Source: Fibrobacter succinogenes (GTDB taxonomy: Bacteria; Fibrobacterota; Fibrobacteria; Fibrobacterales; Fibrobacteraceae). Taken from it: a stretch of DNA of 64,000 nucleotides. This document shows positions 7,696-48,248 of the stretch, in pieces. The notes beneath the pieces are model-generated. The model ran no database searches, was not told the DNA's origin, and worked only from the letters and a program-made list of their open reading frames with translations. The position numbers were made by a program, and so were the translations under genes. Where the stretch lies: contig NZ_CACZDK010000022.1 in the NCBI RefSeq assembly GCF_902779965.1, positions 1-64,000 on the forward strand. The letters are read 5' to 3'. Numbering within the stretch: position 1 is the stretch's first letter; each line of letters opens with the position of its first letter.

Positions 7696-7814
7696 GAATA
7701 CAAATTACAAATAAAAAGGGGCAGGAATTGGGAAATTATGCTTATTTTGCGTTGTTTTAGCCCTTAAAAACGAAAAAAAGTAAAATGACTTTCAATTTCA
7801 AATGTACATCATGC

Positions 7815-7861
7815 GGGAGGGGCCCAAGCTCGGAGTTGCGAAGGCCGCACGGGCCCCTCCC
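7815..7861. repeat. GC-rich inverted repeat
   Basis: GGGAGGGGCCC (7815-7825) and GGGCCCCTCCC (7851-7861) are perfect 11-bp complements around a 25-nt loop. Composition differs sharply from the AT-rich surroundings, which suggests a mobile or dispersed repeat element. Confidence 0.6.
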
Positions 7862-7901
7862 TGCACCCTCCCCATCCTTGGCCGACGCTTTTGAGTTTCA
7901 G

Positions 7902-7942
7902 AAATTATTTAGTAGAAAAATTATTTTTCTACTAAATAATTT
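7902..7942 (+). promoter_or_regulatory. 41-bp perfect palindrome, candidate operator
   Basis: Two perfectly complementary 19-bp arms (7902-7920 and 7924-7942) flank a 3-nt loop TTA. TATAAT lies 7 nt downstream and the first small gene 56 nt downstream, so the palindrome overlaps the expected -35 region. Toxin-antitoxin operons are commonly autoregulated through palindromes in this position. Confidence 0.6.
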
Positions 7943-7997
7943 TAGATATATAATAAAGGTCTAATACTAATGGCATATTCGAAAGGAGTGTAGTACA

Positions 7998-8174
7998 ATG
8001 TTATCCGTAATAGCAATTGCACAAATCGATGCTCTTTATCGAAAATTGCTCTCATATTCAAATGCATCAGACGATCTTATACAAAAGCACAATGAATATG
8101 TAAACAACAAATACGGAGACATTAGAATCACACAAAAAAATAATAACAACAATGATGTTGATTTACCGTTTTAA
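7998..8174 (+). CDS. small protein of unknown function (58 aa)
   Basis: ATG at 7998 is preceded by an AAAGGAG site 9 nt upstream and the frame runs to TAA at 8172. The product starts MLSVIAIAQIDALYRKLL and ends in an Asn-rich tail (QKNNNNNDVDLPF). I recognise no family. It lies 14 nt before the antitoxin-like gene and shares its promoter and palindrome, so the two probably form one transcript. Confidence 0.55.
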   Translation: MLSVIAIAQIDALYRKLLSYSNASDDLIQKHNEYVNNKYGDIRITQKNNNNNDVDLPF

Positions 8175-8188
8175 ATAAGAGGTCTAGT

Positions 8189-8344
8189 ATGTCCACTTTG
8201 CAAACGAAAACAGACAATAAATCAAACAATAACGCAATTGAATTATCTCTTGAAAAAGCAATCGACGATACAAGAAAGCTAGAGAATTTACATGGGCCTT
8301 TTTCTTCAGCAAAAGAAGCCCTAGCCTCTATGCTAGAAGATTAA
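8189..8344 (+). CDS. RelB/DinJ-like antitoxin fragment or orphan antitoxin (51 aa)
   Basis: ATG at 8189 follows AAGAGG; TAA is at 8342. The C-terminal half, AIDDTRKLENLHGPFSS and the following helix, resembles the toxin-binding end of RelB/DinJ antitoxins, where an alpha helix is followed by a G-P-F motif. The N-terminus is short and Asn/Lys-rich and may lack a full ribbon-helix-helix. No toxin gene follows, because the next 660 nt are mostly non-coding. It may be an orphan antitoxin, a remnant, or part of an unusual pair with the 58-residue protein. The family call is tentative. Confidence 0.5.
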   Translation: MSTLQTKTDNKSNNNAIELSLEKAIDDTRKLENLHGPFSSAKEALASMLED

Positions 8345-8382
8345 TCTTGTACGACAACGCAATCATATTCAGGATGACACAC

Positions 8383-8406
8383 AAAAAAAGCGAGGAACAT
8401 CCTCGC
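8383..8406 (-). terminator. intrinsic terminator, minus strand
   Basis: GCGAGG-aacat-CCTCGC with seven A on its left gives a GC-rich hairpin followed by a U run on the minus strand. No convincing minus-strand gene ends here, so it may stop a transcript coming from the structured region at 8631-8826. Confidence 0.6.
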
Positions 8407-8630
8407 CAAAGATGGACCTGGGTCTTTCGACCAGCCCACTTGTAATTTACCAAATTCTTTGCTAAAAATCAACATAGAGAGCATATTCCAACTTGGAATA
8501 CCGTCTGGCGTTCCCCAATGGGAAGTTTTTGCATTTTTTCGCACAAAAATAGCCTGCTTTATAAACTTTTTAAGCGGAATGCTCTTTTTTGAGTTATTTT
8601 TTAAGCGAAAAAGAGTTTAGCTCTTGTTCT

Positions 8631-8826
8631 CTAAGCGAAATCTGCAAATTTCAAGTATTCGAGGACAAGGCGAACGCTCACGCAGATATGCCGTTTTGCG
8701 GTGTATCTCGGTTTGCTGTACCGACTTCTTAGTCGGTCTTTGGTCGTATGACCAAAGGGCAACAGCCCTTTTGGGGCGTGGGGCGTTTGCGTTTATCGAA
8801 TACAGGCATTGCAGAGCCTCGCTTAG
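8631..8826. ncRNA. candidate structured RNA (nested stems with multi-hairpin head)
   Basis: Perfectly complementary segments are strictly nested: CTAAGCG (8631) with CGCTTAG (8820), TCTGCA (8641) with TGCAGA (8810), GTATTCGA (8655) with TCGAATAC (8796), and GCGAACGC (8670) with GCGTTTGC (8783, one G-U). Inside are hairpins AGATATGCCG/CGGTGTATCT, ACCGACT/AGTCGGT and CTTTGGTC/GACCAAAG, then a GGC-aaca-GCC stem. The whole could be a 196-nt RNA with a long interrupted stem and a branched head. Strand is unclear: a minus-strand terminator lies at 8383-8406. A recombination site that folds as single-stranded DNA is an alternative. No known RNA family was recognised. Confidence 0.55.
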
Positions 8827-8902
8827 GTAAATTGCAACGATCTACGCCTTTTTTGTATATCTGCATAATTGGCGCAAATCTTTGACGAACAGGGGAAAAA
8901 CT

Positions 8903-8987
8903 CTAGGCTATACGCCTAGTGGACTTTTGCATATGCAAAAAACATCGTGCTGAAACCCGCGCGGCATGGTGTTTTACAACCTGCGGG
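8903..8987 (+). promoter_or_regulatory. structured leader of the 62-aa gene
   Basis: Three elements precede the ribosome site: the hairpin CTAGGC-tatac-GCCTAG (8903-8919), a perfect 16-bp palindrome TTTTGCATATGCAAAA (8925-8940), and CCCGC (8956) pairing with GCGGG (8983), which ends 10 nt before AAGGAG. The palindrome resembles a regulator site and the last stem could affect ribosome access. Confidence 0.45.
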
Positions 8988-9008
8988 GATTTTATAAGGA
9001 GAAATAAT

Positions 9009-9197
9009 ATGGCTATTGCGCTTGTGAAAAAAAATGGTGCTTACTACGAGGTAATCGATGAAAATGGCTATGTACTTTTTTCATGGGTGAAGGATGGTCT
9101 GCATGGATATACAAGTTCGACTGTCACCTTTAAAAATGGAGCTTATTTGGAGACGTATAACGCAGAGGGTGAACTCATTAATAGCGTTTTGGAGTGA
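9009..9197 (+). CDS. small beta-rich protein of unknown function (62 aa)
   Basis: ATG at 9009 follows a clear AAGGAG site. The product is 62 residues, begins MAIALVKKNGAYYEVIDENG, and contains repeated short strands separated by turns (VKKNGAYYEV, TFKNGAYLETYNAEG). KNGAY occurs twice, pointing to two similar beta hairpins. No signal peptide or membrane segment is present and no family was recognised. It is preceded by an unusually long structured non-coding stretch and followed by a terminator at 9207, so it forms its own unit. Confidence 0.7.
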   Translation: MAIALVKKNGAYYEVIDENGYVLFSWVKDGLHGYTSSTVTFKNGAYLETYNAEGELINSVLE

Positions 9198-9206
9198 GTT
9201 CTGGTG

Positions 9207-9241
9207 AAAAAAAAGAGCTTAATTAACATGACTCTTTTTTT
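9207..9241 (+). terminator. intrinsic terminator after the 62-aa gene
   Basis: An A-rich arm ending GAG (9207-9217) pairs with CTC followed by a run of T (9232-9241). It is AT-rich but well placed, 10 nt after the stop codon. Confidence 0.5.
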
Positions 9242-9263
9242 ATTGTCTAATAAACGGTTAAAG

Positions 9264-9284
9264 CCCTGCACTTTCTGTGCAGGG
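9264..9284. repeat. hairpin CCCTGCAC/GTGCAGGG
   Basis: A perfect 8-bp stem with a 5-nt loop lies 43 nt upstream of the next start codon. No T run follows it, so it is more likely a leader structure or part of a dispersed element than a terminator. Confidence 0.5.
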
Positions 9285-9327
9285 TAGTTCATTCAAAACA
9301 ATTTACCATATCCGTAAAGGAGTAAAA

Positions 9328-10317
9328 ATGAATGGAATACTTACCTTAAATGGAGTAGAAAAAGCTTCCGTTTCAAATTTGGAATTTGAAGATCTCGGTG
9401 TTCCTAATACCAAAATAAAGGGGGTAATAAATTCTCCACACCCTTTCAAATCTTCATCAGATCTTTTGAGGAAAGATGGATTCAATATAACTGGCATCCA
9501 GCTGGTCTTTTCATCTGTAGTATTCGTGAATATTCAAATAAAAGATGAAGTCTGGTATTTTGAATCTATTGGTTCCTTTAATATACAGTCTGAATCCAAT
9601 CCGAGAGCAACTTTGAAAGACATACAAAATAATGTACAAAATTCTGAAAATGCATTTAGATTAAATTCGGAACAGAAAGATCCCCGTCGATTAACCAACA
9701 TTGATTGGAGTAAAGATACTCCTAAAACAGTGGAGGCATGGAAAGCTCTTTCTCCTGAAGAAAAACTTGACTGGTCGATTTGGCATGAAATCAAACTTCA
9801 ACATTTATTTGCTTCGATTGCCATTCTGTTAGAAATTATTTTGGCAATTGTAGCGATCGTTTGTTTGGAAACTGGTGTAGGCATGTCAATACTGATTTGC
9901 TTGGCAACCTTGGCTCTTGCTATCGTTACAGGCGTTTTCAGTAGTTTTTTGTATCGTGCCCTGCGCGCTTGTGTAGCAGGTGGTTTGATAGGCTCAGTAG
10001 TTGCCTTTATTGTTTTGGCGGCGACATCTGAGGGAACTCTTCGTACGCTGCTAATAATTTTAGGCTATATTGGAAGCATTGCTCTTATGGGTTCTATGGA
10101 AGCGAAGGGTGCCATTGGAAAAAAGATTCCTGATTTTCCTGGGCCAACGGAACCCAGTCTTATAGAAGACATGAAAGAACTTCGTAAGCAATTTAAGAAA
10201 AATATGCCGAAAAGAACTAAGAAACCGAAAAAAAGTAAACCATCTGAAAACTTTGGACAGTATATGGATCGTCAGGTAAAGAGCGCCGAAAAGATGAAAG
10301 ACACTTTCGGTTGGTAA
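9328..10317 (+). CDS. integral membrane protein of unknown function (329 aa)
   Basis: ATG at 9328 follows GTAAAGGAG; the frame is open further upstream, but this start has the ribosome site. The N-terminal 150 residues are soluble. Four membrane helices follow (about 160-180, 185-207, 210-232, 238-258), and then a Lys/Pro-rich cytoplasmic tail (KKNMPKRTKKPKKSKP). No family was recognised. It stands 3 nt before the M50-like peptidase gene, which in turn overlaps a secreted protein, so the three form a tight operon and may act together at the membrane. Confidence 0.85.
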   Translation: MNGILTLNGVEKASVSNLEFEDLGVPNTKIKGVINSPHPFKSSSDLLRKDGFNITGIQLVFSSVVFVNIQIKDEVWYFESIGSFNIQSESNPRATLKDIQNNVQNSENAFRLNSEQKDPRRLTNIDWSKDTPKTVEAWKALSPEEKLDWSIWHEIKLQHLFASIAILLEIILAIVAIVCLETGVGMSILICLATLALAIVTGVFSSFLYRALRACVAGGLIGSVVAFIVLAATSEGTLRTLLIILGYIGSIALMGSMEAKGAIGKKIPDFPGPTEPSLIEDMKELRKQFKKNMPKRTKKPKKSKPSENFGQYMDRQVKSAEKMKDTFGW

Positions 10318-10320
10318 AAA

Positions 10321-10914
10321 ATGCAACAGGTGGTAGCTTGGTTTGGGTGGGGTGATGGCATTGGCGCCCTAGCGGGTGTCAGTGCCGTTTTAACTATACT
10401 CGTTGTTATTGTTCCTGTTGTTATTGGAATGTTGCTTTCTAGTTTGAAACGACTGGAAATTAAAATGATTGCTGTGTTTAGTCACAGTCTAGTGCGCTTT
10501 TTCATGCGTTATGTCACGTTCCCAGGAATCGTTATTCATGAATTATCGCATTTTATTTTTGCCGTAATTACGGGTGCTGAAGTTCGGGATATAAGCTTTT
10601 TCGAAGACGATGACGGTCGGCTTGGACATGTAACAACTCACGCTCGTGGGCCTTGGTTTATTGTTGCAATTCAATATACTCTAATTGCTATAGCTCCAGT
10701 GGTTGTGGGCCTGACTTTAGGATTTCTTTTGCTGCGGTATATTTTTGCAGAACAACATTCTTTGGGGATGAATATCGGTTTGTGGTATTTGGTTGTTTGT
10801 CTTATAAATCATTCTACCATGAGTAAATCCGATATTGAAGGATATTTTCGAGGCGTGTGGATTTTTATAGTTCCTTTTTTCACGCTGTTTTTGATGATGG
10901 GAATATATGCTTAA
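10321..10914 (+). CDS. M50-like membrane metallopeptidase
   Basis: The 197-residue protein has a membrane helix at about 18-40, then the zinc motif HELSH (H73, E74, H77) inside a second hydrophobic segment (FPGIVIHELSHFIFAVITGA), and two or three more helices. HExxH within a membrane helix is typical of site-2-protease-like M50 peptidases. A second aspartate ligand in a later helix is not obvious, so some doubt remains about activity. It starts 3 nt after its upstream neighbour and overlaps the next gene by 8 nt. Confidence 0.75.
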   Translation: MQQVVAWFGWGDGIGALAGVSAVLTILVVIVPVVIGMLLSSLKRLEIKMIAVFSHSLVRFFMRYVTFPGIVIHELSHFIFAVITGAEVRDISFFEDDDGRLGHVTTHARGPWFIVAIQYTLIAIAPVVVGLTLGFLLLRYIFAEQHSLGMNIGLWYLVVCLINHSTMSKSDIEGYFRGVWIFIVPFFTLFLMMGIYA

Positions 10915-11488
10915 ATTGCAGGTTATGACAATAAAACTATTGACAATTGTTTTCTTACTAGTGATTCCTCTTTGGGCTGTTGTTATTAAGCCGCCCTTTT
11001 CGAATAGAGATATTCTGATTTATCTTCAGAATTCAACAAGGACCAGTACTGTAGCGGTTCTCAGTACGATGCCCATGGTTGTTGACGGGAAATACAAATG
11101 CCCTTACATTGGTTCTGTGTATGGTCCTATGGACAAAGATTTTACCTGTGCCGATGCATTTGTCTATCATCTAGTAAGAGTAGCTGCAAACAATAAAAAA
11201 ACTTTAGACTGTTACTATGATTACGACCAACTTAGCGGCGGTCATCCTGTTTCAGTCCCAAATCAAAAGGAATGTCCCGACATTCTTGTCAGCTATGCTG
11301 GAATGAAATTTTTTGCAGCCGTTTACTTCGATGAACTTGATGATTACCGACTGTATTACTACGATATGGAAATTCCGAAACAAGTTTTTCAAGGAGATCT
11401 TGAAAAATTCCCTAAAGTACAATCACAAATACTGTATCGGCAAAAGCACATGCAAAAAGATAAGCCTAAGAAAGAAATTGTTTTTTAA
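10907..11488 (+). CDS. secreted or membrane-anchored protein of unknown function (193 aa)
   Basis: The protein starts with a hydrophobic leader (IKLLTIVFLLVIPLWAVVI) and is then soluble, with two Cys pairs (KCPYIG..FTCADA and DCYYDYD..ECPD). It overlaps the peptidase gene by 8 nt; ATG at 10925 is a possible alternative start. Its location suggests a periplasmic partner or substrate of the M50-like peptidase. That role is inferred from position only. Confidence 0.75.
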   Translation: MLKLQVMTIKLLTIVFLLVIPLWAVVIKPPFSNRDILIYLQNSTRTSTVAVLSTMPMVVDGKYKCPYIGSVYGPMDKDFTCADAFVYHLVRVAANNKKTLDCYYDYDQLSGGHPVSVPNQKECPDILVSYAGMKFFAAVYFDELDDYRLYYYDMEIPKQVFQGDLEKFPKVQSQILYRQKHMQKDKPKKEIVF

Positions 11489-11524
11489 GTGCATTAGGAT
11501 TTATCTTCCCATAGGGGGAACACA

Positions 11525-11710
11525 CATAAAAATGAGACCCCGGCACGGTGGCCGGGGTGACAATGTAATTCGAGAATTTACTGGGTCCTTCCGCCTACGG
11601 CGTCAGGATGACGCTATAAAAAAGGCGACCCCGGCATGGTTCGGCAGGCTCACCAACCTTAGGCCGGGGTGACATTGTAAAGGCGATCCCGCAACAAGTG
11701 CGGGATGACA
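11525..11710. repeat. cluster of dispersed palindromic GGATGACA-type repeats
   Basis: Four repeat units follow each other. They are CCCCGG..CCGGGG with GTGACAATG (11537-11565), a unit ending TCAGGATGACG (about 11581-11612), a CCCCGGCATGG...CCGGGGTGACATTG unit (11629-11676), and ATCCCGC..GCGGGATGACAATG (11687-11713). The same words recur at 19861, 22088 and 50634 and within genes. The last hairpin may also end iorBA transcription, but it lacks a strong T run. Confidence 0.75.
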
Positions 11711-11717
11711 ATGCTAA

Positions 11718-31274: not shown

Positions 31275-33110
31275 CTAGTTTTTCACGCAACGGACATTTT
31301 GACCGTTATACTTGCTACCGCGATACATGTACGCCTTGGTATAGATGTTGTTCATATTCATGTATTCGGCTTCATATTCCGTATATTCGCTGGTGCTCCA
31401 GAAGTAATTATCAGTGGAGACCTTTTGATATGATCCTGATTCAAGTCTTCTGCCGACCGGTAGCGCCGTAAACCCATAAGCATCAATGCCGCGACCTTCC
31501 GCAGAAGGGCCCCATCCACTCAACGATTTGAGATTCCGGCCTGCAATTTCGCTATTGCCCAAGGCGACAATCAATTTTCCCAATTCATGTCGCGTCGGCA
31601 AGTGCCAACCATCCGGGCAAATTCCCTGCACACTGCGTGCCAGCCCGCACTCTTTGCCATAGCCACACACCAACGGATTAGCCGTATCCGCAGCAAGTGC
31701 CGCTGAATCGATTGCAGCCATCCATGTGTAATAGCGCCCCGAAACCTTGCAATACTTTTCATCATCATGGTAGCACCAACTTTGTTTCTTCAAGATTGGC
31801 ATCTGGGCAGTATCGGCATAGTTCAAATTTTCGGCCATCCACACTTGAGAATAGTCCTTTCCCTCAGGCGCAATTTTCACGATTCTATACACCTGTTTAT
31901 CGCGCGGGTCAATCATCGTGTCGTATTTAATATTTGGATTAAAGTAATCTTCCTTGGGGATATCCCAGTCCCAATTTTTCGAAGCAATCAAGCTACTGCT
32001 AGATTTGGCTTCACTGCTGCTTGAAACGGCAGAACTGCTGCTGGACTTCGCGGAACTGCTACTCGATTTTGCAGAGCTACTGCTGGACTTCGCAGAGCTA
32101 CTGGACGACGCCGCAACAGGTTCGCCCTTCACGCAACGGACACTTTGTCCATAATACTTGTAATTCTGGTATATATAAAATTTGGTGTAAATGTTGTTTA
32201 TATTCGAATATCGGGCATAATCGGCACTCTGTTCGGTGGAACTCCAGTAATAAACATCCGAGCCCACCTTTTCCCAACGAGTAGCAGAAATCCTTCTTCC
32301 AGTCGGGAGCGCCGTAAAGCCATATTTATCCGTACCGTTGTTGTCAGCCGTTCCGGCGTAGTTCCACCCGGTCAAAGCCTTGAGAGAATCGCCAGCTACA
32401 CCAGCATTTCCTAACGCCACGCTCAACTTGCCCCATTCATCGATTGTCGGCAAATGCCAGCCATCCGGACAAATTCCCTGGATACCATGATTAAGTGCAC
32501 ATATCCTGCCATAACCGCAATTTAACGGTTCCTTCGGATCATTTGCCAAAGCAACTGAGTCAATTGCAGCTGCCCAGGTGTAATAACGGCCACCCACCTT
32601 GCAGTTTTTTTCATCATCGTTGTAGCACCAGTTGCTGCCCTTCAAGCTTGGCGTCTTGACACTATCGGCATAGTTGAGATTTTCTGCCATCCAGACTTGA
32701 GAATAGTTTTTGCCTTCAGGTGCAATCTTCACGATTTTATACACGTGATTATCACGCGGGTCAATCATCGTGTCATACTTGATTTCGGGATTCAAGCGAG
32801 CGGACTGCGGCACGTCCCAGCTCCATTCTTTAGGGATAGCCGAACTAGACGACTTTGCATCATCACGCAAAGCAGACGAAGACGATGTGGACTTCACACT
32901 ACTACTCGACATTCCGACTTCCTTGCCGGAATCCTTCTTGCTGCTGCTCGATTTAGACAAGCTAAATTCCGATTTCATGGAGCTGCTAGATTCTATTTCC
33001 GAGCTGGACGAAACATCGTCTGCACCCGTCACCCCCTCAATTTCAAGTTCAGCGCACGCCCAAAACAACGACGTACACGAGACAACTGTCAGTAATTTAT
33101 TCCATTTCAT
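31275..33110 (-). CDS. FISUMP lipoprotein with two FISUMP domains
   Basis: The 611-residue protein starts at ATG 33110 (MKWNKLL) with a lipobox SLFWAC19. A Ser-rich stalk (about 25-100) follows, then FISUMP domain 1 (about 110-335; VYKIVKIAPEGKNYSQVWMAENLNYADS, QGICPDGWHLP, SVRCVKG), a linker of SSSSSAK repeats, and FISUMP domain 2 (about 390-611). Unlike the other lipoproteins here it lacks the AGVAQKGPF N-terminal domain. FISUMP domains are abundant in Fibrobacter; their role is unproven and probably involves extracellular binding. It is the last gene of module A. Confidence 0.9.
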   Translation of the reverse strand: MKWNKLLTVVSCTSLFWACAELEIEGVTGADDVSSSSEIESSSSMKSEFSLSKSSSSKKDSGKEVGMSSSSVKSTSSSSALRDDAKSSSSAIPKEWSWDVPQSARLNPEIKYDTMIDPRDNHVYKIVKIAPEGKNYSQVWMAENLNYADSVKTPSLKGSNWCYNDDEKNCKVGGRYYTWAAAIDSVALANDPKEPLNCGYGRICALNHGIQGICPDGWHLPTIDEWGKLSVALGNAGVAGDSLKALTGWNYAGTADNNGTDKYGFTALPTGRRISATRWEKVGSDVYYWSSTEQSADYARYSNINNIYTKFYIYQNYKYYGQSVRCVKGEPVAASSSSSAKSSSSSAKSSSSSAKSSSSSAVSSSSEAKSSSSLIASKNWDWDIPKEDYFNPNIKYDTMIDPRDKQVYRIVKIAPEGKDYSQVWMAENLNYADTAQMPILKKQSWCYHDDEKYCKVSGRYYTWMAAIDSAALAADTANPLVCGYGKECGLARSVQGICPDGWHLPTRHELGKLIVALGNSEIAGRNLKSLSGWGPSAEGRGIDAYGFTALPVGRRLESGSYQKVSTDNYFWSTSEYTEYEAEYMNMNNIYTKAYMYRGSKYNGQNVRCVKN

Positions 33111-33223
33111 AGATTTCTCCTTTTTTTGAAAAATGTTCCCCTTAGCGAATGACAAATCCGCCATTCGCCATATTAATTTCAAAACTTATTCAAGCTATTT
33201 TAAAGAGCGCTACATTTGCTTCG

Positions 33224-35317
33224 CTAGTCTTTTACGCAACGAACACTCTGTCCATAATATTTTGCGCCTTGATACAGATAGAATTTGGTGTAGATGTTAT
33301 TCATGTTCGAATATTGCGCTTCATTCGCACTATATTCTTGGGAACTCCAATAATAAACATCAGAACCAATATTACTCCAGCTAGTATCAGAGACTCTTCT
33401 TCCAGTCGGGAGTGCCGTAAACCCATAGGCATCCACGCCGTTATTATTTTCCGTCCCGGCATAATCCCAACCGGTCAGCGCCTTGAGGCTATCACCGGAC
33501 ACGCCCGCATTCCCTAAGTAAACGCTCAACCAGCCCCATTCATCACGGTTCGGCAAGTGCCAACCGTCGGGACAAATTCCCTGTATGCGTTGTTCGCCAA
33601 TTTCGCACGTTTTGCCATATCCGCAATCTAAAGGAGCAACCGTATCAGAGGCAAGCGCAACCGAGTCAATCGCCGCCGCCCAAGTGTAATAGCGGCCGCT
33701 CACCTCACAATATTTTGCACTGTCGCGATAGCACCAGCTTTTACCCTTCAAGCTCGGAGTCTTGACGCTATCATCATAGTTCAAATTCTCTGCCATCCAG
33801 ACCTTCGAATAATCCCTTTCCTTCACTTCGATTTTTACCACTCTGTACACACGCTTGTCGCGCGGATCCACCATTGAATCGTACTTGATATTCGGATTAA
33901 AGCGAGCAGCCAAAGGCACATCCCAGCTCCATTCCTTCGTCACAACATAGCCCTTCACGCAGCGGACGGACATTCCATCATCCCTGTAGTAGTCAACTTC
34001 ATCCGCTTCGTCGTTTTGGTATTTCAAGAATATGTAGTACGAGCGATTTTTTCCGTACTCTGTAGAACTCCAGAAATACGCACCACCATCACCACCATAG
34101 AAACTTTCATTGGTACTCCTGCCACCAGCAGGCAACGCAGTAAACGAGTAATCATCCGTGCCGTTGCCGTCTTTTATCCAGCCGCTGGCTGACTTGAGTT
34201 TCTTGCCCGCTGTAGATTGTCCGCCGACCGTAGTGAACAATGTTTCAAATTCATCTATTGTCGGCAAGTGCCAGCCTTCAGGGCATGCTTTATTCGCAGC
34301 AGCCCATGAGTAAAGGCGACCGTACTTTGTACAATATTCAGCGGAATCATTATAGCAGTAACTAGAGTCTGTTTCAAAGTTCAGGTTTTCCGCCATCCAC
34401 ACCTGATTACCGATCTTGACCGTCTTGTATGTCTGACCGTCGCGGGCATCCGTCATTACATTCGAGTCATTAGTTGACGAATCGCCCACAAACTTTTCTA
34501 CGACCTTTTCAAAATCGGGAATTTCGTTTGCGAATCCCCAATTTTCCATATTCTTGCGAATTGAATCCATCACATCCGTCGCCACAGCATCTGCAATCCA
34601 GTCGGCAATCGCTGTTTTCGTATCGGAGTCGTCCCACTCGCCACTTTTAGCAAAGGAATCGCTGAACTTATCCAGACGTTCCGCAAGCGTTTTCACATCG
34701 ACATCGCCTTGCATCAACACACTTATAGCAAGGAGCGTCGCATCTGCATCGCTTGTTCCAAAAATATCCAAGCTTTCAAACTCCGTCGATTCGCCCGCCA
34801 TGCCAAACGCAGCAAGTACATCGTTTTCAGCCAATTCCTTCGCCTTGTCGAAAGCCTCGCCCTTTTCTGCGACATAGTACATCACGCGCTCGTATTCCAG
34901 GTTCGTAAGCAAGTTGACATTCACATACGTACGGTCCTTGAGATTCGTCAACGCACGGAGCGTCAATTTATCCGAGACCTTCTTCCCTGTCATTTCACTA
35001 CGGTATTCACCAGTGACTTCAACAACAGCACAAGTCGTCGACAAGTTCACATTATTAACAACAAATTCACCCATATTGTTTTTGACAGAACCCTCAAAAA
35101 TTTCATCCGTGAATTCCATCGTCTTGCAGTCAATTCCCCGTACCGTCACTTCAGAACCCTTAGCAAACGGACCCTTCTGCGCCACGCCAGCCACATTCAG
35201 GTCAGCAATGATGCCTGCATCATCCGAAGAACCGCCCGCGACTTTGTCATCGGAGCATGCCGAAAACATCGACACAATGGCAAACACCAACGCGAAAGTA
35301 AAAACATCCCTAAACAT
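33224..35317 (-). CDS. FISUMP lipoprotein with N-terminal QKGPF domain and two FISUMP domains
   Basis: The 697-residue protein (ATG 35317 after AAAAGAGCC; ATG 35338 is possible but its site is too close) has lipobox SMFSAC. An N-terminal domain shared by eight lipoproteins of this region (about 25-270) follows, with LNVAGVAQKGPFAKGSEVTVRGIDCKT and a VNVNLLTNLEYERV helix. Two FISUMP domains follow (about 290-455 and 460-697). The N-terminal domain joins a small beta domain with carboxypeptidase-regulatory-like turns to a helical part. The gene begins at the stop of the TIGR02147 gene, so the two are translationally coupled. Confidence 0.92.
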   Translation of the reverse strand: MFRDVFTFALVFAIVSMFSACSDDKVAGGSSDDAGIIADLNVAGVAQKGPFAKGSEVTVRGIDCKTMEFTDEIFEGSVKNNMGEFVVNNVNLSTTCAVVEVTGEYRSEMTGKKVSDKLTLRALTNLKDRTYVNVNLLTNLEYERVMYYVAEKGEAFDKAKELAENDVLAAFGMAGESTEFESLDIFGTSDADATLLAISVLMQGDVDVKTLAERLDKFSDSFAKSGEWDDSDTKTAIADWIADAVATDVMDSIRKNMENWGFANEIPDFEKVVEKFVGDSSTNDSNVMTDARDGQTYKTVKIGNQVWMAENLNFETDSSYCYNDSAEYCTKYGRLYSWAAANKACPEGWHLPTIDEFETLFTTVGGQSTAGKKLKSASGWIKDGNGTDDYSFTALPAGGRSTNESFYGGDGGAYFWSSTEYGKNRSYYIFLKYQNDEADEVDYYRDDGMSVRCVKGYVVTKEWSWDVPLAARFNPNIKYDSMVDPRDKRVYRVVKIEVKERDYSKVWMAENLNYDDSVKTPSLKGKSWCYRDSAKYCEVSGRYYTWAAAIDSVALASDTVAPLDCGYGKTCEIGEQRIQGICPDGWHLPNRDEWGWLSVYLGNAGVSGDSLKALTGWDYAGTENNNGVDAYGFTALPTGRRVSDTSWSNIGSDVYYWSSQEYSANEAQYSNMNNIYTKFYLYQGAKYYGQSVRCVKD

Positions 35318-35318
35318 T

Positions 35319-36191
35319 CTAGGCTCTTTTCTTTTCATTTCCCTCTTCCTTATTTTTTAAAGTCTTGTTTGCAACTTCCAGATTTTCGCTTATCGGAAAC
35401 AGTTGCAAGTTCAAACGGTACACACGCTGCGTTTCGTTACTTTCCGTAGCAATCGCAATAATGCGGCGGCGAAATTCCAAAAGTTCCTTCTTGATTCGTT
35501 CGTAAGAATCTTGCGTCAGTCCAACTACAACTCCCGACATAGAGCGTTCCGCAAGCGGCAAGTCCAATGCCTTCACGGCAAGCTCGCCCATTTGGCGCTG
35601 CAAATCTTTTGCAGCAATCGGCACCGCATCCACGGAGCCCATCGATATGGACTTATCCGTCTGCACATAATTTCCATTACGGTCTTTTTTCAGGAGGTTC
35701 GCATCTTCCAAAAAATCAAGCGTCTCAACGGCTTCCGCTGTAGAAATTTTCGGCTTGCACGCACGCGCCATTTCGGCAGGTCTTGCACCAGGCATATGCG
35801 GAGCGAGTTCACGGAGCAACGGATTTTTCCAGGACTTGTAGTAGTCAAATTCTTCGCCACCGAGCACACGAACCTTATGAGCCCTCGCCAACGCACAGCG
35901 TTTTTCGAACGCTACCATTTTCGCCTCGTCCCCTTTGGCATGGGCGTACGTTACCATCAAAACAAAATATGTCTTTTCAAATCCGGCAAGTCCCATGGCG
36001 TTCGCAACTGAACTTGCGGCACTGATGCTCAGATTCTTTTTTCCTTCAGCAACATACTTCAGAAAAATTGCCGATGCAAAACCGGCATTCTGAGCAAACT
36101 CACGCCAAGTAAAAGCGGATTCGCGTTTGCGTTCATCATAGTAATCCTGAATGAACTTGCGATAATCTGTATATTCAACAATCGCCTTCAT
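35319..36191 (-). CDS. TIGR02147/DUF4423 family regulator A
   Basis: The 290-residue protein begins EYTDYRKFIQDYYDERKR, followed by a helix-turn-helix (about 26-50, FTWREFAQNAGF then ASAIFLKYV). The central helical region and C-terminal DUF4423 region (about 170-270, SMGSVDAVPIAAKDLQRQMGELAVKALDLP) are typical of the family. TIGR02147 proteins are paralogous in Fibrobacter and Bdellovibrio and are thought to regulate transcription. The start is 7 nt from a TATATT, with no ribosome site. Its stop overlaps the following lipoprotein frame. Confidence 0.93.
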   Translation of the reverse strand: MKAIVEYTDYRKFIQDYYDERKRESAFTWREFAQNAGFASAIFLKYVAEGKKNLSISAASSVANAMGLAGFEKTYFVLMVTYAHAKGDEAKMVAFEKRCALARAHKVRVLGGEEFDYYKSWKNPLLRELAPHMPGARPAEMARACKPKISTAEAVETLDFLEDANLLKKDRNGNYVQTDKSISMGSVDAVPIAAKDLQRQMGELAVKALDLPLAERSMSGVVVGLTQDSYERIKKELLEFRRRIIAIATESNETQRVYRLNLQLFPISENLEVANKTLKNKEEGNEKKRA

Positions 36192-36322
36192 GATTACAAA
36201 TATAGCTTTTCAATATTATTAGAATACAAAAATTGCCGTTTTCAGCATAATTTTTACGTTTTTAGCCATTTTTAAACTAATTTCACAAAATTCTAGAACA
36301 CAAGATGTGTCCCTGGGACACA
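36192..36322 (-). promoter_or_regulatory. promoter/operator of module A
   Basis: Reading toward the gene on the minus strand there is a perfect palindrome TGTGTCC-CAG-GGACACA (36306-36322). The half-site GTGTTC (36296-36301), a 68-nt A/T-tract core, a proximal half-site GTATTC (36222-36227) and TATATT (36199-36204) follow, the last ending 7 nt before the ATG. The layout matches modules B and C, but the hexamer words differ. Confidence 0.7.
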
Positions 36323-36348
36323 AAAAAAGACCCGCAACCAAGTGCGGG
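36322..36348 (-). terminator. terminator of regulator module B
   Basis: CCCGC (36332-36336) pairs with GCGGG (36343-36347), with seven A on the left giving a T run on the minus strand. It lies about 50 nt after the long GLUG gene and abuts the module A operator. Confidence 0.75.
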
Positions 36349-36398
36349 CCTATGATATCGTCAATCAAATAAAACTTTTAAAATCTATTCTGCTATCA

Positions 36399-39300
36399 TC
36401 ATTTGAGCAGCACAGTTTTTTCGACAGCCTTGCCGCCAACCTGCAAAAATCCGATGTAACGCCCGCGAGCAATTTCCGCAGCATCGAGCGTTTCGAAGTA
36501 GCCACCCGCAGCACGACGGCCAAGGTCGAACGCCCGCACAACACGTCCCTGCATATCGACGAGCGAGAACTTTACATTACCCGATTTCGGCAATTCGTAG
36601 CGAAGCGACACAAGATTTCCATTGAAAGCAACATTAAAACGACCGCGAGATTTCTGTGCAATCAATTTTACGGAGCCATTCAAAGTAAGCTTTGTCTGCG
36701 CAGCATCACTCCAAAGAGTATCGCCCGCAAATACAATCCCCACGCGATAATCAATATTGAAGTTCCCTGAAGCGACAGCCCCTGCCTTTTCCAGCGAATC
36801 AAGGCGTTTTTCGCTCGTTGAGTCGAACTTGACAACCAAAGTATAAGATGGATCGAAGACAATCGCATTTTTCTGCAAATCAGCACGAACCGCACTAACC
36901 TTAAACTTATCTGCATCGTACTTCAAGTCAACTTTACCTGCATAAAACACGTTTGGCAAACCGCGCAACATCGGATAAGTAATTCCTTCCTTAATATCCC
37001 AAATTGATTCAAAGTCAAACCCAGTAAAATTATTTTTCGTTCTTATTCCGATAGAATCAAGAGCTTGGCCATAATATTTTTCATCTTCGATATAACAAAA
37101 TTTTGAAGATGTTTCGAAAAATACGTTTTCAAACGTTTTTGAATCATTCAGGGCGTGATAATTAAATTGACAGGAGTTGCTAGCAATAAAGCTATTCTTG
37201 ATACCATCCTTCTCATTTTCAGGTCTATTGGTATAAACAAAATATTGCACCCCTATAGCATAGCAATTTTCAATGGATTTATTGTTTTGATTGACAAAAA
37301 CATCGTTTTCATGTCCAATGATATAAGCTCTATCAATAGTCCCATAGTTTTCGTAAACCAAAGCTTCTGTTGAATCAATCATAGCGAACGATTTTATAAT
37401 AGTCCCCTTGTTGGTATCCACTAAGCCGCTTCTTCTCCCTCCATGGAAAATAAAGGCTCCCGTAGTATGGCAGTTTTCTATAACGCCGTTATTTTTGTAA
37501 ACAAGGGCTGCACCACTTATGGAACCTTTAGCAACAGTAGTCGAACTGTTCACGATAGTTCCATTATTCTCGAAAACAAGACCCGCTCTTTCTATAGGGC
37601 CTTTTACATGGACCGCATTAACAAGGCCATAATTTTTTTGAGCAAGTATCCCAGATACGCGAGAACTGTCCGTAAGCACAATGCTCAAGCTGTCAACTTT
37701 CGCTTCTTCGCCAATCGTTCTGAACAGTCCCACATTACCCATATGCAAATTCTTTATCGAATAGCCATTTCCATGGAACACGCCCGTAAAAGTCGATTCC
37801 CCATCACGATCGTACAAAGCTCCAAACAGCTTATAACAATTATCTCGATAAACACCAATAGTCGCAAATCCATGCCACACAGAGCACCGAGAAGACCCAT
37901 CTGCATAATGTATATAATACTCTTCATTTAGCGATGCAGACGCATCAATGTCATTTGCAAGGCTATAGATTGCAGACATTTTATATTTTCCATAACCAAT
38001 AACCTTTAAATCATCGTATGTTTTAACAAGGAATGGATCCTTTTCTGTACCAGAGCCTTTCATTTCATATTTTAATTCACGCTCACCATCTCGTACAGGA
38101 CGGACATCTGTACCAGCCCAAATAAGTCGTGGATAATAATCTGCATCTTTTTTTGTCCATACATTTTCAAAATCCCAGTCCTTATACGAGGAAACATCCA
38201 GCATTTCTGCGGTAGTCAAAGCTTTACCAACAGAACTTTGATTATACTGCCAAACTTCCTTATCGTAATAAACAGAAGTAAAAGTGGAGCCCGAACTAGA
38301 ACCAACTAGATTTCCCGTTTTAGAATTCCCCTGTACATGACTAATAGCATAAAGGTTTTTATATGTAGATGCAGAATCTATTCCAGAAAAACCTCCAACA
38401 TAAGATTCGCCTGTCACCGTTGCCATAGCAATATCATTCATATATGAAGCTTTTTGAGATTCTCCAGCAACTGCCCCTACATATTTTTCGCCTATAGCAT
38501 TTCCATCCGCAATAACTAGACTTGCGGAGCCACCCTTTTTGGAACCAAAAAGCATCCCAACATAACTATTTCCTTGAATCGTAGAATTAAAAATCCACAC
38601 ACGTTCAATCGAGGCTCCCTTGTCAACGCCAGCCAAACCGCCCGCATAGTTTTTGCCCTTGATAACCAAAGAATCCAACATCAAGCCCGTTACCTTGGCC
38701 GTCGGCGAAAGCGAACGGAAAAGGCCCACAGAATCTTCATCTGGACGATTGATATATAAGCCTGTAATCATTTTATTATCGCCTATAAAGACACCACTAA
38801 ATTCAGGAATCGGTTCAAAGCCCTTGCATTCCGTTCCATCACTGTTGCAGTCTTCTCTCTCATTTTCCCATACATAAATATTATCTGTAAGTTTGTAATA
38901 AAGGTCTGTTTTGTACTCATACTTGCCAATATACTTGAGGTCATTGTAACGAGAAATAAGATACGGACTTTCTTCTGTACCTTCACCAAGCAAGACATTT
39001 ACAGAACCATCATCAACAAACTTTCCGGGAAGCACCGCATCCGTCCCCTTGAAATAAGGATACGACTTGCCTTCCTGAATTGTCCATACGCCATTAAAAT
39101 CAAAATTCTCGAACGAGGCCTGATGCAACATCTGCTCACTTGAAAGCACAGTTCCTTCAGTCACATTCCAATTATAGGCATGAACTATCTGCGTCAGGCC
39201 GCCATCATAATACAGATTTTCAAATATGCCATCGTGATTGTTGATATGATCCCCTATAACTCCATTTAGATTGTCTTTAGGACCTTTTAAGATACTTGCG

Positions 39301-41630
39301 GAATAAACGTTGTACACAGTATCACCTATCAGCAATCTAGCATTAGCTCCACCGATAGCGCCACCAACATCTTCATGGCCTTTGACTACACTCACAGCAT
39401 ACCCATCTTTAAGATAAGAGGCAAAACAGCCGATAAGGCCTCCAACATTCCTCGCCCCCTTGACAGAGCCCGTGCTACCCACCTTGAGAATGCTGTCTTT
39501 ATATGCGGCACCAATAAGACCACCCACCTGATCATCCCCTTTAACATTGCCATCATACGAAACAACATTACTTATAAAAGATTTCTCTATTTGACCGCCA
39601 AGTACACCTGCATATTCCCCACCACTAACTTTTGAATTTTTGAAGACAAGATTTTTTATTGATGATTGACTTGCAAATCCGAAAAGCCCTGCATAAAATT
39701 GGTTTTGCGTATCGACAGTCAAACCTTCAATAACATGATTATTCCCTTCAAAGGTTCCCGTAAACGGTTTACGTTCTTCTCCTATAGGGGTAAAGTTTGA
39801 GGAAGAAGCATCGATATCTTCGACAAGTTCATAATTTGCAAACAACGGATGACTCATGAAATTGCCTATTTTTTTAAGATCATCAAAAGTTGCAATTTCA
39901 ATATGGTTCGGCACCGCCATATAACTGATCGTTCCCCAAACTGTATCGGACTCATTGGCGTAACCGATTCTATAACTGTAATAAATGGAATCCTTCGCTT
40001 CGTTCAAACGAACAAGTTCCAGCCACTTACCAAACAGTTCGTAACCGACATCTTTTTCAGCGGCAACTATAGGTTTCTCTTGCCATTTCGCCGCTTTTGT
40101 GGGGACAGCGACAGCAATAATATTTGCGGTAGCCTTTGCATTTTTACCCAAGTTCGCCAAATAAGGATAAGACTCGCCTTCATCAATATTCCAAATGCCT
40201 AAAGTATCTCTTGTACCAAGCTCATAGAAATCGCACGTTTCATAAATATCAAATACAGTTCCTTCGTATTCTATTTTAAAATTGCATTTTGACATGTTTT
40301 CCCAGCCGACAAAACTGGACAAATGCTTCATGGCAGAATCCGAAAGCCCAATACCGACCTTGCTCGTATCAATTCCAGCCAAATCAACATTCCAATAGCA
40401 ACTATTTACAGAATCACCCTCGCTAAAACCGCTGACATACAAATACGCAGTATCCCTATCATCGGGCAATTCAATCTTCCCGACAGAATAGCTCCCATAA
40501 ATCGATCCCCAGTTACCGCCAGCAAAACCACCAATTTCCATATACTTGTTTCTCAACACCTTTACAGAGCCCGTAGCATACGAATATTCAATTTGTCCAC
40601 CGCGAGAATTTTTACCGACCAAGCCACCAACAGTTTCATACCCCGTAACATTTCCCGTCGCGTAAGCTTCGGATATTTTAGCCTTATTCAATCCAACAAG
40701 CCCACCAATACATTCCGAAAAGTATCCCTGATTAAAGGACATGATATCAACAGAGGCATAGCTCAGCTCAACAAAGCCATCTTCATTCAACCCGACAAGG
40801 CCACCAATGTTCGACGCAGCCTTTTCAACCTCAGGAACAATAATCCCCATAGCATAGCTTTTAGTAATTGACGGGTAAACACGAGAATTACTTTCACCAA
40901 CAAGACCACCTACATTCTTAGATTCATTATTAATCCCTACAAATATTTCAACATCGGCAAAACTTTCTTGAACATGACCTTCAAGGGTACCGATTAAACC
41001 ACCCACATTTCTTCGACCTTGAACAACCCCTTCAAACGATGAGTTGCTAACAAATGATTTATTCGTTTCCAATTGACCAACAAGACCACCGACATAGCGC
41101 AAGCCTTCTACATGGCCATCCTTCACATGGACATTTGTAATTTGCCCCTTAGATAAGCCTACAACACCGCCAACATAATCCGAATGAGGAGCGTAATCCG
41201 TATCATATCCACCATACACTCTCAAATGTTCGAATTTTAGATTGGATAAAGAACCTTCCAATTGTGCAATAAAACCTACATAGTGAAGGCACGGTAGCCA
41301 TATACGGAGATTCTTGATAACGTGATCCTGCCCGTCGATGCTCCCGGAAAATGGGATAATAACTGTCGAGTTTTGAACTTGACCAATGGCAATAAAACTA
41401 TTGCACACATGACCGTTACAGTATTCATGCTCCGATGCCGATGCATCAATATCTTTTGTCACGATGTAATTTGACGAATAAAGATAGGCGTTCTTGCCAA
41501 TAGATTTCAAATCTTCATAATCTTCAATTTGGAACGGCTTTGCTGTGGAGCCGTCACCTTTCATAATGCCGTTCGCGGCAAATGCCTGAACAGCAAATAA
41601 AGCTACTGCAGTTGCAAAAATCAACCTCAT
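36399..41630 (-). CDS. giant GLUG-repeat secreted protein (1743 aa)
   Basis: ATG at 41630 gives a signal peptide (RLIFATAVALFAVQAFA). The protein is built of four large blocks. Each begins with a GDGSTAKPFQIEDYEDLKSIG-like segment and contains GLUG motifs of the form VGGLVG-x4-G-x-I-x3-Y-A-x-G. The C-terminal 85 residues (KFSLVDMQGRVVRAFDLGRR..GRYIGFLQVGGKAVEKTVL) form a Por/T9SS-like sorting module. GLUG proteins form beta helices and are found in secreted adhesins and peptidases. It is the last gene of module B. Confidence 0.92.
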   Translation of the reverse strand: MRLIFATAVALFAVQAFAANGIMKGDGSTAKPFQIEDYEDLKSIGKNAYLYSSNYIVTKDIDASASEHEYCNGHVCNSFIAIGQVQNSTVIIPFSGSIDGQDHVIKNLRIWLPCLHYVGFIAQLEGSLSNLKFEHLRVYGGYDTDYAPHSDYVGGVVGLSKGQITNVHVKDGHVEGLRYVGGLVGQLETNKSFVSNSSFEGVVQGRRNVGGLIGTLEGHVQESFADVEIFVGINNESKNVGGLVGESNSRVYPSITKSYAMGIIVPEVEKAASNIGGLVGLNEDGFVELSYASVDIMSFNQGYFSECIGGLVGLNKAKISEAYATGNVTGYETVGGLVGKNSRGGQIEYSYATGSVKVLRNKYMEIGGFAGGNWGSIYGSYSVGKIELPDDRDTAYLYVSGFSEGDSVNSCYWNVDLAGIDTSKVGIGLSDSAMKHLSSFVGWENMSKCNFKIEYEGTVFDIYETCDFYELGTRDTLGIWNIDEGESYPYLANLGKNAKATANIIAVAVPTKAAKWQEKPIVAAEKDVGYELFGKWLELVRLNEAKDSIYYSYRIGYANESDTVWGTISYMAVPNHIEIATFDDLKKIGNFMSHPLFANYELVEDIDASSSNFTPIGEERKPFTGTFEGNNHVIEGLTVDTQNQFYAGLFGFASQSSIKNLVFKNSKVSGGEYAGVLGGQIEKSFISNVVSYDGNVKGDDQVGGLIGAAYKDSILKVGSTGSVKGARNVGGLIGCFASYLKDGYAVSVVKGHEDVGGAIGGANARLLIGDTVYNVYSASILKGPKDNLNGVIGDHINNHDGIFENLYYDGGLTQIVHAYNWNVTEGTVLSSEQMLHQASFENFDFNGVWTIQEGKSYPYFKGTDAVLPGKFVDDGSVNVLLGEGTEESPYLISRYNDLKYIGKYEYKTDLYYKLTDNIYVWENEREDCNSDGTECKGFEPIPEFSGVFIGDNKMITGLYINRPDEDSVGLFRSLSPTAKVTGLMLDSLVIKGKNYAGGLAGVDKGASIERVWIFNSTIQGNSYVGMLFGSKKGGSASLVIADGNAIGEKYVGAVAGESQKASYMNDIAMATVTGESYVGGFSGIDSASTYKNLYAISHVQGNSKTGNLVGSSSGSTFTSVYYDKEVWQYNQSSVGKALTTAEMLDVSSYKDWDFENVWTKKDADYYPRLIWAGTDVRPVRDGERELKYEMKGSGTEKDPFLVKTYDDLKVIGYGKYKMSAIYSLANDIDASASLNEEYYIHYADGSSRCSVWHGFATIGVYRDNCYKLFGALYDRDGESTFTGVFHGNGYSIKNLHMGNVGLFRTIGEEAKVDSLSIVLTDSSRVSGILAQKNYGLVNAVHVKGPIERAGLVFENNGTIVNSSTTVAKGSISGAALVYKNNGVIENCHTTGAFIFHGGRRSGLVDTNKGTIIKSFAMIDSTEALVYENYGTIDRAYIIGHENDVFVNQNNKSIENCYAIGVQYFVYTNRPENEKDGIKNSFIASNSCQFNYHALNDSKTFENVFFETSSKFCYIEDEKYYGQALDSIGIRTKNNFTGFDFESIWDIKEGITYPMLRGLPNVFYAGKVDLKYDADKFKVSAVRADLQKNAIVFDPSYTLVVKFDSTSEKRLDSLEKAGAVASGNFNIDYRVGIVFAGDTLWSDAAQTKLTLNGSVKLIAQKSRGRFNVAFNGNLVSLRYELPKSGNVKFSLVDMQGRVVRAFDLGRRAAGGYFETLDAAEIARGRYIGFLQVGGKAVEKTVLLK

Positions 41631-41678
41631 ATTTTCACCATTCCTTCTCATTTTATCTTATTTAAAATATAAAAACCT

Positions 41679-43505: not shown

Positions 43506-43523
43506 ATCATACCTCATCCATCT

Positions 43524-45818: not shown

Positions 45819-45858
45819 ACGCATTTCCATCTAATGACCATTGACCAACCACTACTTA

Positions 45859-48198: not shown

Positions 48199-48248
48199 AC
48201 GAATCCTTCTCTTTTTTCCAAACACGAATTAATTTTTATTTGAGCCTT

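What the first reader, a model, noticed from the sequence alone, without database searches (positions are those of the whole stretch)
8631..8826. Nested-stem RNA of about 196 nt with a branched head
Four perfect or near-perfect complementary pairs (7, 6, 8 and 8 bp) are ordered 5' to 3' as a strict nest over 196 nt, enclosing three or four hairpins. Random sequence rarely gives this. It lies in a long gene-free stretch of an accessory island beside a small gene with its own structured leader. It could be a new ncRNA or a folded recombination site.
Basis: partly seen in the sequence, partly recalled or inferred. Interest (0 to 1): 0.75.

Follow-up and report, generated by a model that had tools for sequence, protein, structure and literature searches.

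The report
Terminator-bearing leader RNA of Fibrobacter genes
The feature is one copy of a large, previously unlisted RNA family of gut bacteria (Fibrobacteraceae) that sits just ahead of dozens of unrelated accessory genes, DNA-modification genes among them, and probably decides through an RNA fold whether the gene behind it is transcribed.

Summary
In detail: window 8631-8826 folds far better than shuffles (z -8.9; 0 of 200). It belongs to a multicopy RNA family: 6 copies in this genome, 2-20 in each of 37 related genomes, and in 77 of 151 phylum genomes searched, all in one family. No Rfam 15 family matches. Covariation is extreme. In 63 copies under 85% identical, three 7-bp helices (P1-P3) pair cognately almost without exception while their sequences vary; no permutation of 20,000 matched. 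H3 is an intrinsic-terminator hairpin, with a U-run in 62 of 66 copies. Nested P1-P4 and H5+H3 are nearly isoenergetic. Copies carry a promoter-like box upstream and usually a gene start 60-100 nt (or 240-420 nt) downstream. The genes are unrelated: 90 distinct first genes, enriched in restriction-modification and FISUMP lipoproteins. Cargo is exchanged behind a conserved leader. Best explanation: a cis-acting transcription attenuator, trigger unknown. A recombination site is not supported. An intramolecular paranemic fold is the most novel reading left open.

The parts
8593..8601 (+). promoter-like box (TTATTTTTT), inferred -10/-7 element
   Evidence: sequence; TATWTTT-type box in the 70 nt upstream of 73% of 64 diverse copies versus 14% of shuffles; role inferred
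8612..8624 (+). H0: small hairpin AGAG/CUCU at the 5' end of the conserved unit
   Evidence: alternates AGAG:CUCU, GAGC:GCUC, GAGA-uucg-UCUC in other copies
8623..8669 (+). H5: hairpin, outer stem 8623-8631/8661-8669, inner stem 8637-8641/8648-8652; its loops hold the 5' strands of P1, P2, P3
   Evidence: outer stem paired in 57-63 of 63 copies at each position, inner stem 5/5 in 54 of 63
8631..8637 (+). P1 5' strand (CUAAGCG), pairs with 8820-8826
   Evidence: 7/7 in 60 of 63 copies, 36 different sequences, 0/20000 permutations
8641..8647 (+). P2 5' strand (UCUGCAA), apical loop of H5, pairs with 8809-8815
8655..8661 (+). P3 5' strand (GUAUUCG), pairs with 8797-8803
8673..8682 (+). near-invariant RACGCUCACG: P4 5' strand, inferred antiterminator strand, complementary to CGUGRGU of H3
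   Evidence: GCTCACG near invariant in the diverse copies; pairing invariant, so not testable by covariation; role inferred
8683..8772 (+). variable head (three to four hairpins here; 7 to about 180 nt in other copies, several sequence types)
8773..8850 (+). H3: terminator hairpin, outer stem 8773-8797/8827-8850, inner stem AGGC/GCCU 8804-8807/8816-8819; loops hold the 3' strands of P3, P2, P1
   Evidence: -31.8 kcal/mol for 8770-8860 alone; nearly all of 23 pairs kept in 28-30 of 30 copies
8849..8854 (+). U-run of the intrinsic terminator
   Evidence: at least 6 T in 8 in 62 of 66 copies
9009..9197 (+). first gene behind the element in this copy: 62-aa ORF with Shine-Dalgarno (AAGGAG)
   Evidence: not scanned against family libraries
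9328..10317 (+). next co-directional ORF (about 329 aa), probably same accessory unit

Best explanation
The element is a cis-acting 5' leader RNA, a transcription attenuator. Transcription starts just upstream of 8612. The nascent RNA folds H5, then the head, and then has two outcomes. (1) H3 forms with its U-run and RNA polymerase stops before the gene. (2) The 3' strand zips onto the 5' arm (P4, P3, P2, P1), the base of H3 cannot close, and transcription continues into the gene. Shown by sequence and covariation: the helices P1-P3, H5 and H3, the U-run, the position ahead of genes, the multicopy distribution and the cargo exchange behind a conserved leader. Inferred: that it is transcribed from the + strand, that H3 terminates, that the two folds alternate, and that this controls the gene. 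The trigger (a protein, a ligand or RNA polymerase kinetics) is unknown. The copy-specific P1-P3 sequences probably keep each leader folding on itself and not with other copies.
For: Fold z -8.9. P1, P2, P3 cognate pairing about 7/7 versus 4.1-4.5 non-cognate, 0/20000 permutations; kept in nearly all copies of four genomes down to weak CM hits. H3 pairs and U-run conserved. Two states nearly isoenergetic: mean difference -1.9 kcal/mol; the MFE contains P1 in 20 of 63 copies and lacks it, mostly in favour of H5 + terminator, in 43. TATWTTT-type box upstream 73% vs 14%. Start codon mostly 60-100 nt after the terminator, 90 distinct first genes among 120. Leader shared up to the start codon while the genes differ. 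Present across Fibrobacteraceae, absent outside it in the genomes searched. No Rfam match.
Against: No transcript or termination data. P4 is invariant, so the antiterminator itself is not supported by covariation. H5/H3 and P1-P3 share only one base at each junction, unlike ordinary attenuators in which the alternative helices compete for the same bases; they could coexist. No ligand, no dedicated NusG paralogue (one NusG only), and no common function of the downstream genes points to a trigger.
Confidence: 0.6

Rival explanations
1. A free-standing multicopy small RNA gene (promoter, 250-nt structured RNA, terminator) that happens to sit upstream of accessory genes and acts in trans.
For: It has its own promoter-like box and a strong terminator; near-identical copies occur with different neighbours.
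Against: A gene with a Shine-Dalgarno starts at a fixed short distance in most loci, and leader sequence is conserved up to the start codon between loci with different genes. In about 30 loci, among them DNA-methyltransferase loci, a second H5-like hairpin with the same code lies about 47 nt behind the terminator, which makes most sense if RNA polymerase reads through.
Confidence: 0.15
2. An intramolecular docked (paranemic or kissing) RNA: H5 and H3 both form and their internal and apical loops pair at the same time through P1, P3 and P2, making a rigid body that a protein or RNA polymerase reads.
For: All helices of both sets are conserved in the same copies. The sets use disjoint nucleotides except one base per junction. 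Block lengths are about 8-7-4-7-4-7-8, and 7+4 equals one A-form turn. P2 fills both apical loops as in 7-nt kissing loops.
Against: Covariation cannot tell coexistence from alternation. Secondary-structure energies already allow a switch. Spacers between P2 and P3 are unequal (7-8 vs 5 nt). No natural example is known to me.
Confidence: 0.2
3. A folded recombination or cassette-insertion site (integron attC-like) or small mobile element.
For: Cargo genes are exchanged behind the element (L060/L068, L078/L081, L134/L153) and near-identical elements occur at different sites (L019/L168, L127/L130). The window's copy lies in an lptC-iorB insertion hot spot that is nearly empty in other genomes.
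Against: Divergence points are scattered (about +10 to +378) and mostly at start codons; no fixed crossover, and no recombinase recognised at the compared loci; attC-type ends (RYYYAAC/GTTRRRY) not seen by eye. Upstream 1 kb is shared in several swaps, so this looks like homologous exchange. Terminator, U-run and promoter-like box are not expected of an att site.
Confidence: 0.05

Closest known systems
Terminator/antiterminator leaders (trp-type attenuators, riboswitch expression platforms)
   Same: 5' leader, intrinsic terminator, alternative pairing that spares the terminator, gene shortly downstream.
   Different: The alternative helices hardly share bases with the terminator. Their sequences differ from copy to copy but are always self-complementary. 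One leader family serves many unrelated accessory genes; no ligand or leader peptide recognised.
LoaP / UpxY / RfaH-type antitermination leaders
   Same: A common 5' leader element in front of different accessory operons with terminators (PMC12691694 for LoaP, abstract only; UpxY and RfaH from own knowledge).
   Different: Those need a specialised NusG paralogue; only one NusG gene was found in this genome, and those leaders are not known to me to carry copy-specific paired codes.
RNAI/RNAII-type kissing hairpins and designed paranemic RNA motifs
   Same: Two hairpins with fully complementary 7-nt apical loops, and here also complementary internal loops.
   Different: Intramolecular, three paired segments, in a leader with a terminator; docking not demonstrated.
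DUF3800-XI and freshwater-2 RNAs (Rfam RF02975, RF02980)
   Same: One passes its threshold and the other has a sub-threshold hit in the same intergenic stretch of the window.
   Different: They lie outside the element; no sequence or structural relation seen.

Membership tests
Any Rfam 15 family | score at or above the family's gathering threshold | tested here: not met
   No family passes its threshold over 8612-8858 in the window (at E up to 5 only a chance-level microRNA hit), and none in 14 loci with diverse copies.
Transcription attenuator (cis-acting leader) | intrinsic terminator hairpin with U-run in the leader | tested here: met
   H3 conserved in pairing, U-run in 62/66 copies.
Transcription attenuator (cis-acting leader) | alternative conserved pairing incompatible with the complete terminator | tested here: inconclusive
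   P1-P3 covary strongly and the two folds are nearly isoenergetic, but P4, the part that competes base for base, is invariant.
Transcription attenuator (cis-acting leader) | located 5' of a gene in the same direction | tested here: met
   120 of 139 elements have a + strand ORF with ribosome-binding site downstream, most 60-100 nt away.
Transcription attenuator (cis-acting leader) | signal-dependent read-through | not testable with these tools
   needs RNA data
Riboswitch | target genes of one pathway, as expected of a metabolite sensor | tested here: not met
   Target genes are unrelated (90 distinct first genes).
Riboswitch | direct ligand binding | not testable with these tools
   needs binding or probing experiments
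Specialised-NusG (LoaP/UpxY/RfaH) antitermination | a dedicated NusG paralogue in the genome | tested here: not met
   Single PF02357 match in the 4.09-Mb assembly, about 97% complete.
Integron attC or other site-specific recombination site | fixed crossover point | tested here: not met
   Divergence points scattered from about +10 to +378.
Integron attC or other site-specific recombination site | associated recombinase | not tested
   No recombinase was recognised among the genes of the compared loci, but none was searched for specifically.

The most novel reading that the evidence does not exclude
A natural intramolecular paranemic-crossover RNA. Two hairpins, one of them the transcription terminator, dock through complementary internal and apical loops whose sequences act as a copy-specific address, so that each of up to 20 or more paralogous leaders in a cell folds only with itself. 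In some loci, including several DNA-methyltransferase loci, a second hairpin (H5b) with the same address competes for the terminator after read-through.
Probability: 0.22. Interest if true: 0.9.

Novelty: new variant of a known kind. Interest (0 to 1): 0.7.

Why it matters
It is an abundant, strongly supported RNA family of a major group of cellulose-degrading gut bacteria that Rfam 15 does not list. It links one leader design to many exchangeable accessory genes, restriction-modification systems among them, and so raises a testable idea: newly gained genes come under control by landing behind a ready-made RNA switch. Its paired-hairpin architecture, with sequences that differ between copies but always match within a copy, would be structurally new if both helix sets form together.

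Tried and rejected
Rfam (4 searches): only DUF3800-XI and a sub-threshold freshwater-2-like hit, both outside the element, plus chance-level hits. IMG/VR pattern scan: no viral copy. NusG paralogue: none. boxA-like reading of UGCUCUUGUUCUC: not kept in divergent copies. Automatic RNAalifold on the 5' arm found no structure, probably because MAFFT misaligns the variable loops; per-copy parsing was used instead, after a first parse with a wrong P2 offset. Site-specific recombination: no fixed breakpoint. Two protein-family calls failed on coordinates, so the window's own small proteins were not scanned. Two loci have no convincing or a misassigned 5' arm (L216, L225).

Full report
WHAT IS THERE. 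Searching the window's own genome with the element found further copies. A covariance model of the 3' hairpin (R1) finds 6 copies in this genome, 2-20 in each of 37 genomes of the genus, and none in 24 other genomes of the phylum. In a wider draw of 151 phylum genomes there are 77 positives, all in the same family, in five genera. The records that carry it are Fibrobacter or Fibrobacteraceae; a few MAG contigs labelled Bacilli, Lachnospiraceae or Bacteroidales are probably misbinned (inference). No viral contig matched the core pattern.

ANATOMY. Similarity between copies covers about 8612-8858. The conserved parts are the two arms; the head between them (8683-8772) varies from 7 to about 180 nt and in sequence type. 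The 5' arm is a hairpin H5: CUUGUUCUC - P1 strand - GAAAU - P2 strand - AUUUC - P3 strand - GAGGACAAG. The 3' arm is a hairpin H3: GGGGCGUGGGUCGUUUGCGUUUAUC - P3' - AGGC - P2' - GCCU - P1' - GGUAAAUGCAACGAUCUGCGCC - UUUUUU (family consensus). The variable segments of the two hairpins are complementary: internal loop to internal loop (P1, P3) and apical loop to apical loop (P2).

COVARIATION. In 63 copies under 85% identical to each other, P1 pairs 7 of 7 in 60, P2 and P3 in nearly all. Most exceptions are one-base offsets of my parser. Non-cognate arms give 4.1-4.5 of 7, and 0 of 20,000 permutations reach the observed sums. P1 occurs in 36 and P3 in 37 different sequences. H5's outer stem is paired in 57-63 of 63 copies at each of nine positions, and its inner stem is complete in 54. 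H3's pairs are kept in 28-30 of 30 copies, mostly by G-U/G-C exchanges, so the double-change evidence there is weaker. Copies down to weak CM hits in four genomes keep all three P helices. So both helix sets are under selection. They share only the base at each junction. The permutation test does not correct for relatedness, but codes this varied and this consistently matched do not depend on one lineage.

TWO STATES OR ONE. Nearest-neighbour energies put the nested fold and the H5 + head + terminator fold within -1.9 kcal/mol on average. P1 is in the minimum-energy fold of 20 of 63 copies and absent from 43. Folding growing transcripts of the window copy, H5 and the head form first, then P4, and then P3, P2 and P1 zip up as the 3' strand appears. 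This fits a co-transcriptional switch. The regular block lengths (7 + 4 = one A-form turn) and the disjoint bases also fit a docked, paranemic form. Covariation cannot decide between them.

WHERE IT SITS. A TATWTTT-type box lies upstream in 73% of copies against 14% of shuffles, and the U-run is present in 62 of 66. Of 139 elements, 120 have a + strand ORF with a ribosome-binding site behind them, most 60-100 nt after the terminator, others 240-420 nt. The first genes fall in 90 dissimilar groups. Of 85 scanned, 20 carry the FISUMP domain (PF09603), 11 are C5-cytosine methyltransferases, and a few more match other methyltransferases or a restriction enzyme. PADLOC agrees on the methyltransferases. 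Divergent copies lie largely before genes that look by sequence like type I, II and III modification genes (my reading of the translations). In the four genomes checked, about six of some 17 C5-methyltransferase genes have an element directly upstream. FISUMP genes number 69-137 per genome, so that association is less striking.

CARGO EXCHANGE. Between genomes with near-identical elements, the leader is often shared up to the start codon while the gene differs: L078/L081, L019/L168, L102/L159, L041/L125. In L060/L068 the upstream 2 kb, the element and the downstream neighbour are the same but the genes between are unrelated. The window's copy lies in a hot spot between lptC and iorB that is 208-271 nt in two genomes, about 4 kb here, and about 5.8 kb in another, where the element points the other way.

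SECOND HAIRPIN. About 30 loci, including several of the methyltransferase loci, carry H5b, a second H5-like hairpin about 47 nt behind the terminator, with the same P1-P3 code as the first (19.2 of 21 letters against 15.1 for codes of other loci). The 30 were selected by that match, so the comparison between them and other codes is the informative part. Some of these have a further terminator-like hairpin. This suggests that H3 has two possible partners after read-through. I cannot say what that does.

VERDICT. This is a new RNA family by Rfam and by the literature held here. The most likely function is a cis-acting transcription attenuator serving exchangeable accessory genes; the trigger is unknown. 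Shown: structure, family, position, exchange. Inferred: transcription, termination, switching and regulation.

Noticed in passing
window 8392-8438 (-): DUF3800-XI RNA (RF02975) above its gathering score, in the same intergenic stretch on the opposite strand.
   Followed up: partly
window 8925-9011 (+): Freshwater-2-like hairpins (30.7 bits, below the 49.9 cut-off) ending at the start codon of the 62-aa ORF; a similar hairpin stretch follows the element in L013 and L020, without Rfam match.
   Followed up: partly
window 7696-11717: lptC-iorB intergenic region is an insertion hot spot: about 0.2 kb in some genomes, up to 6 kb in others.
   Followed up: partly
L041, L042, L043, L050, L190, L198 downstream of the element: Long leaders, in most of these before DNA-methyltransferase genes, with a second H5-like hairpin carrying the same code; in the four read in full a second terminator-like hairpin and a hairpin near the ribosome-binding site follow.
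   Followed up: partly
window 31281-48833 (-): Cluster of FISUMP (PF09603) domains; 104 matches in the genome.
   Followed up: no
window 7902-7942: Perfect 20-nt inverted repeat with a 1-nt spacer in AT-rich sequence near the island edge.
   Followed up: no
L101, L126, L180, L183, L194 upstream of the element: TTGACATA or TGACAT motif just before H0 in many divergent copies, near the expected transcript start; unexplained.
   Followed up: no
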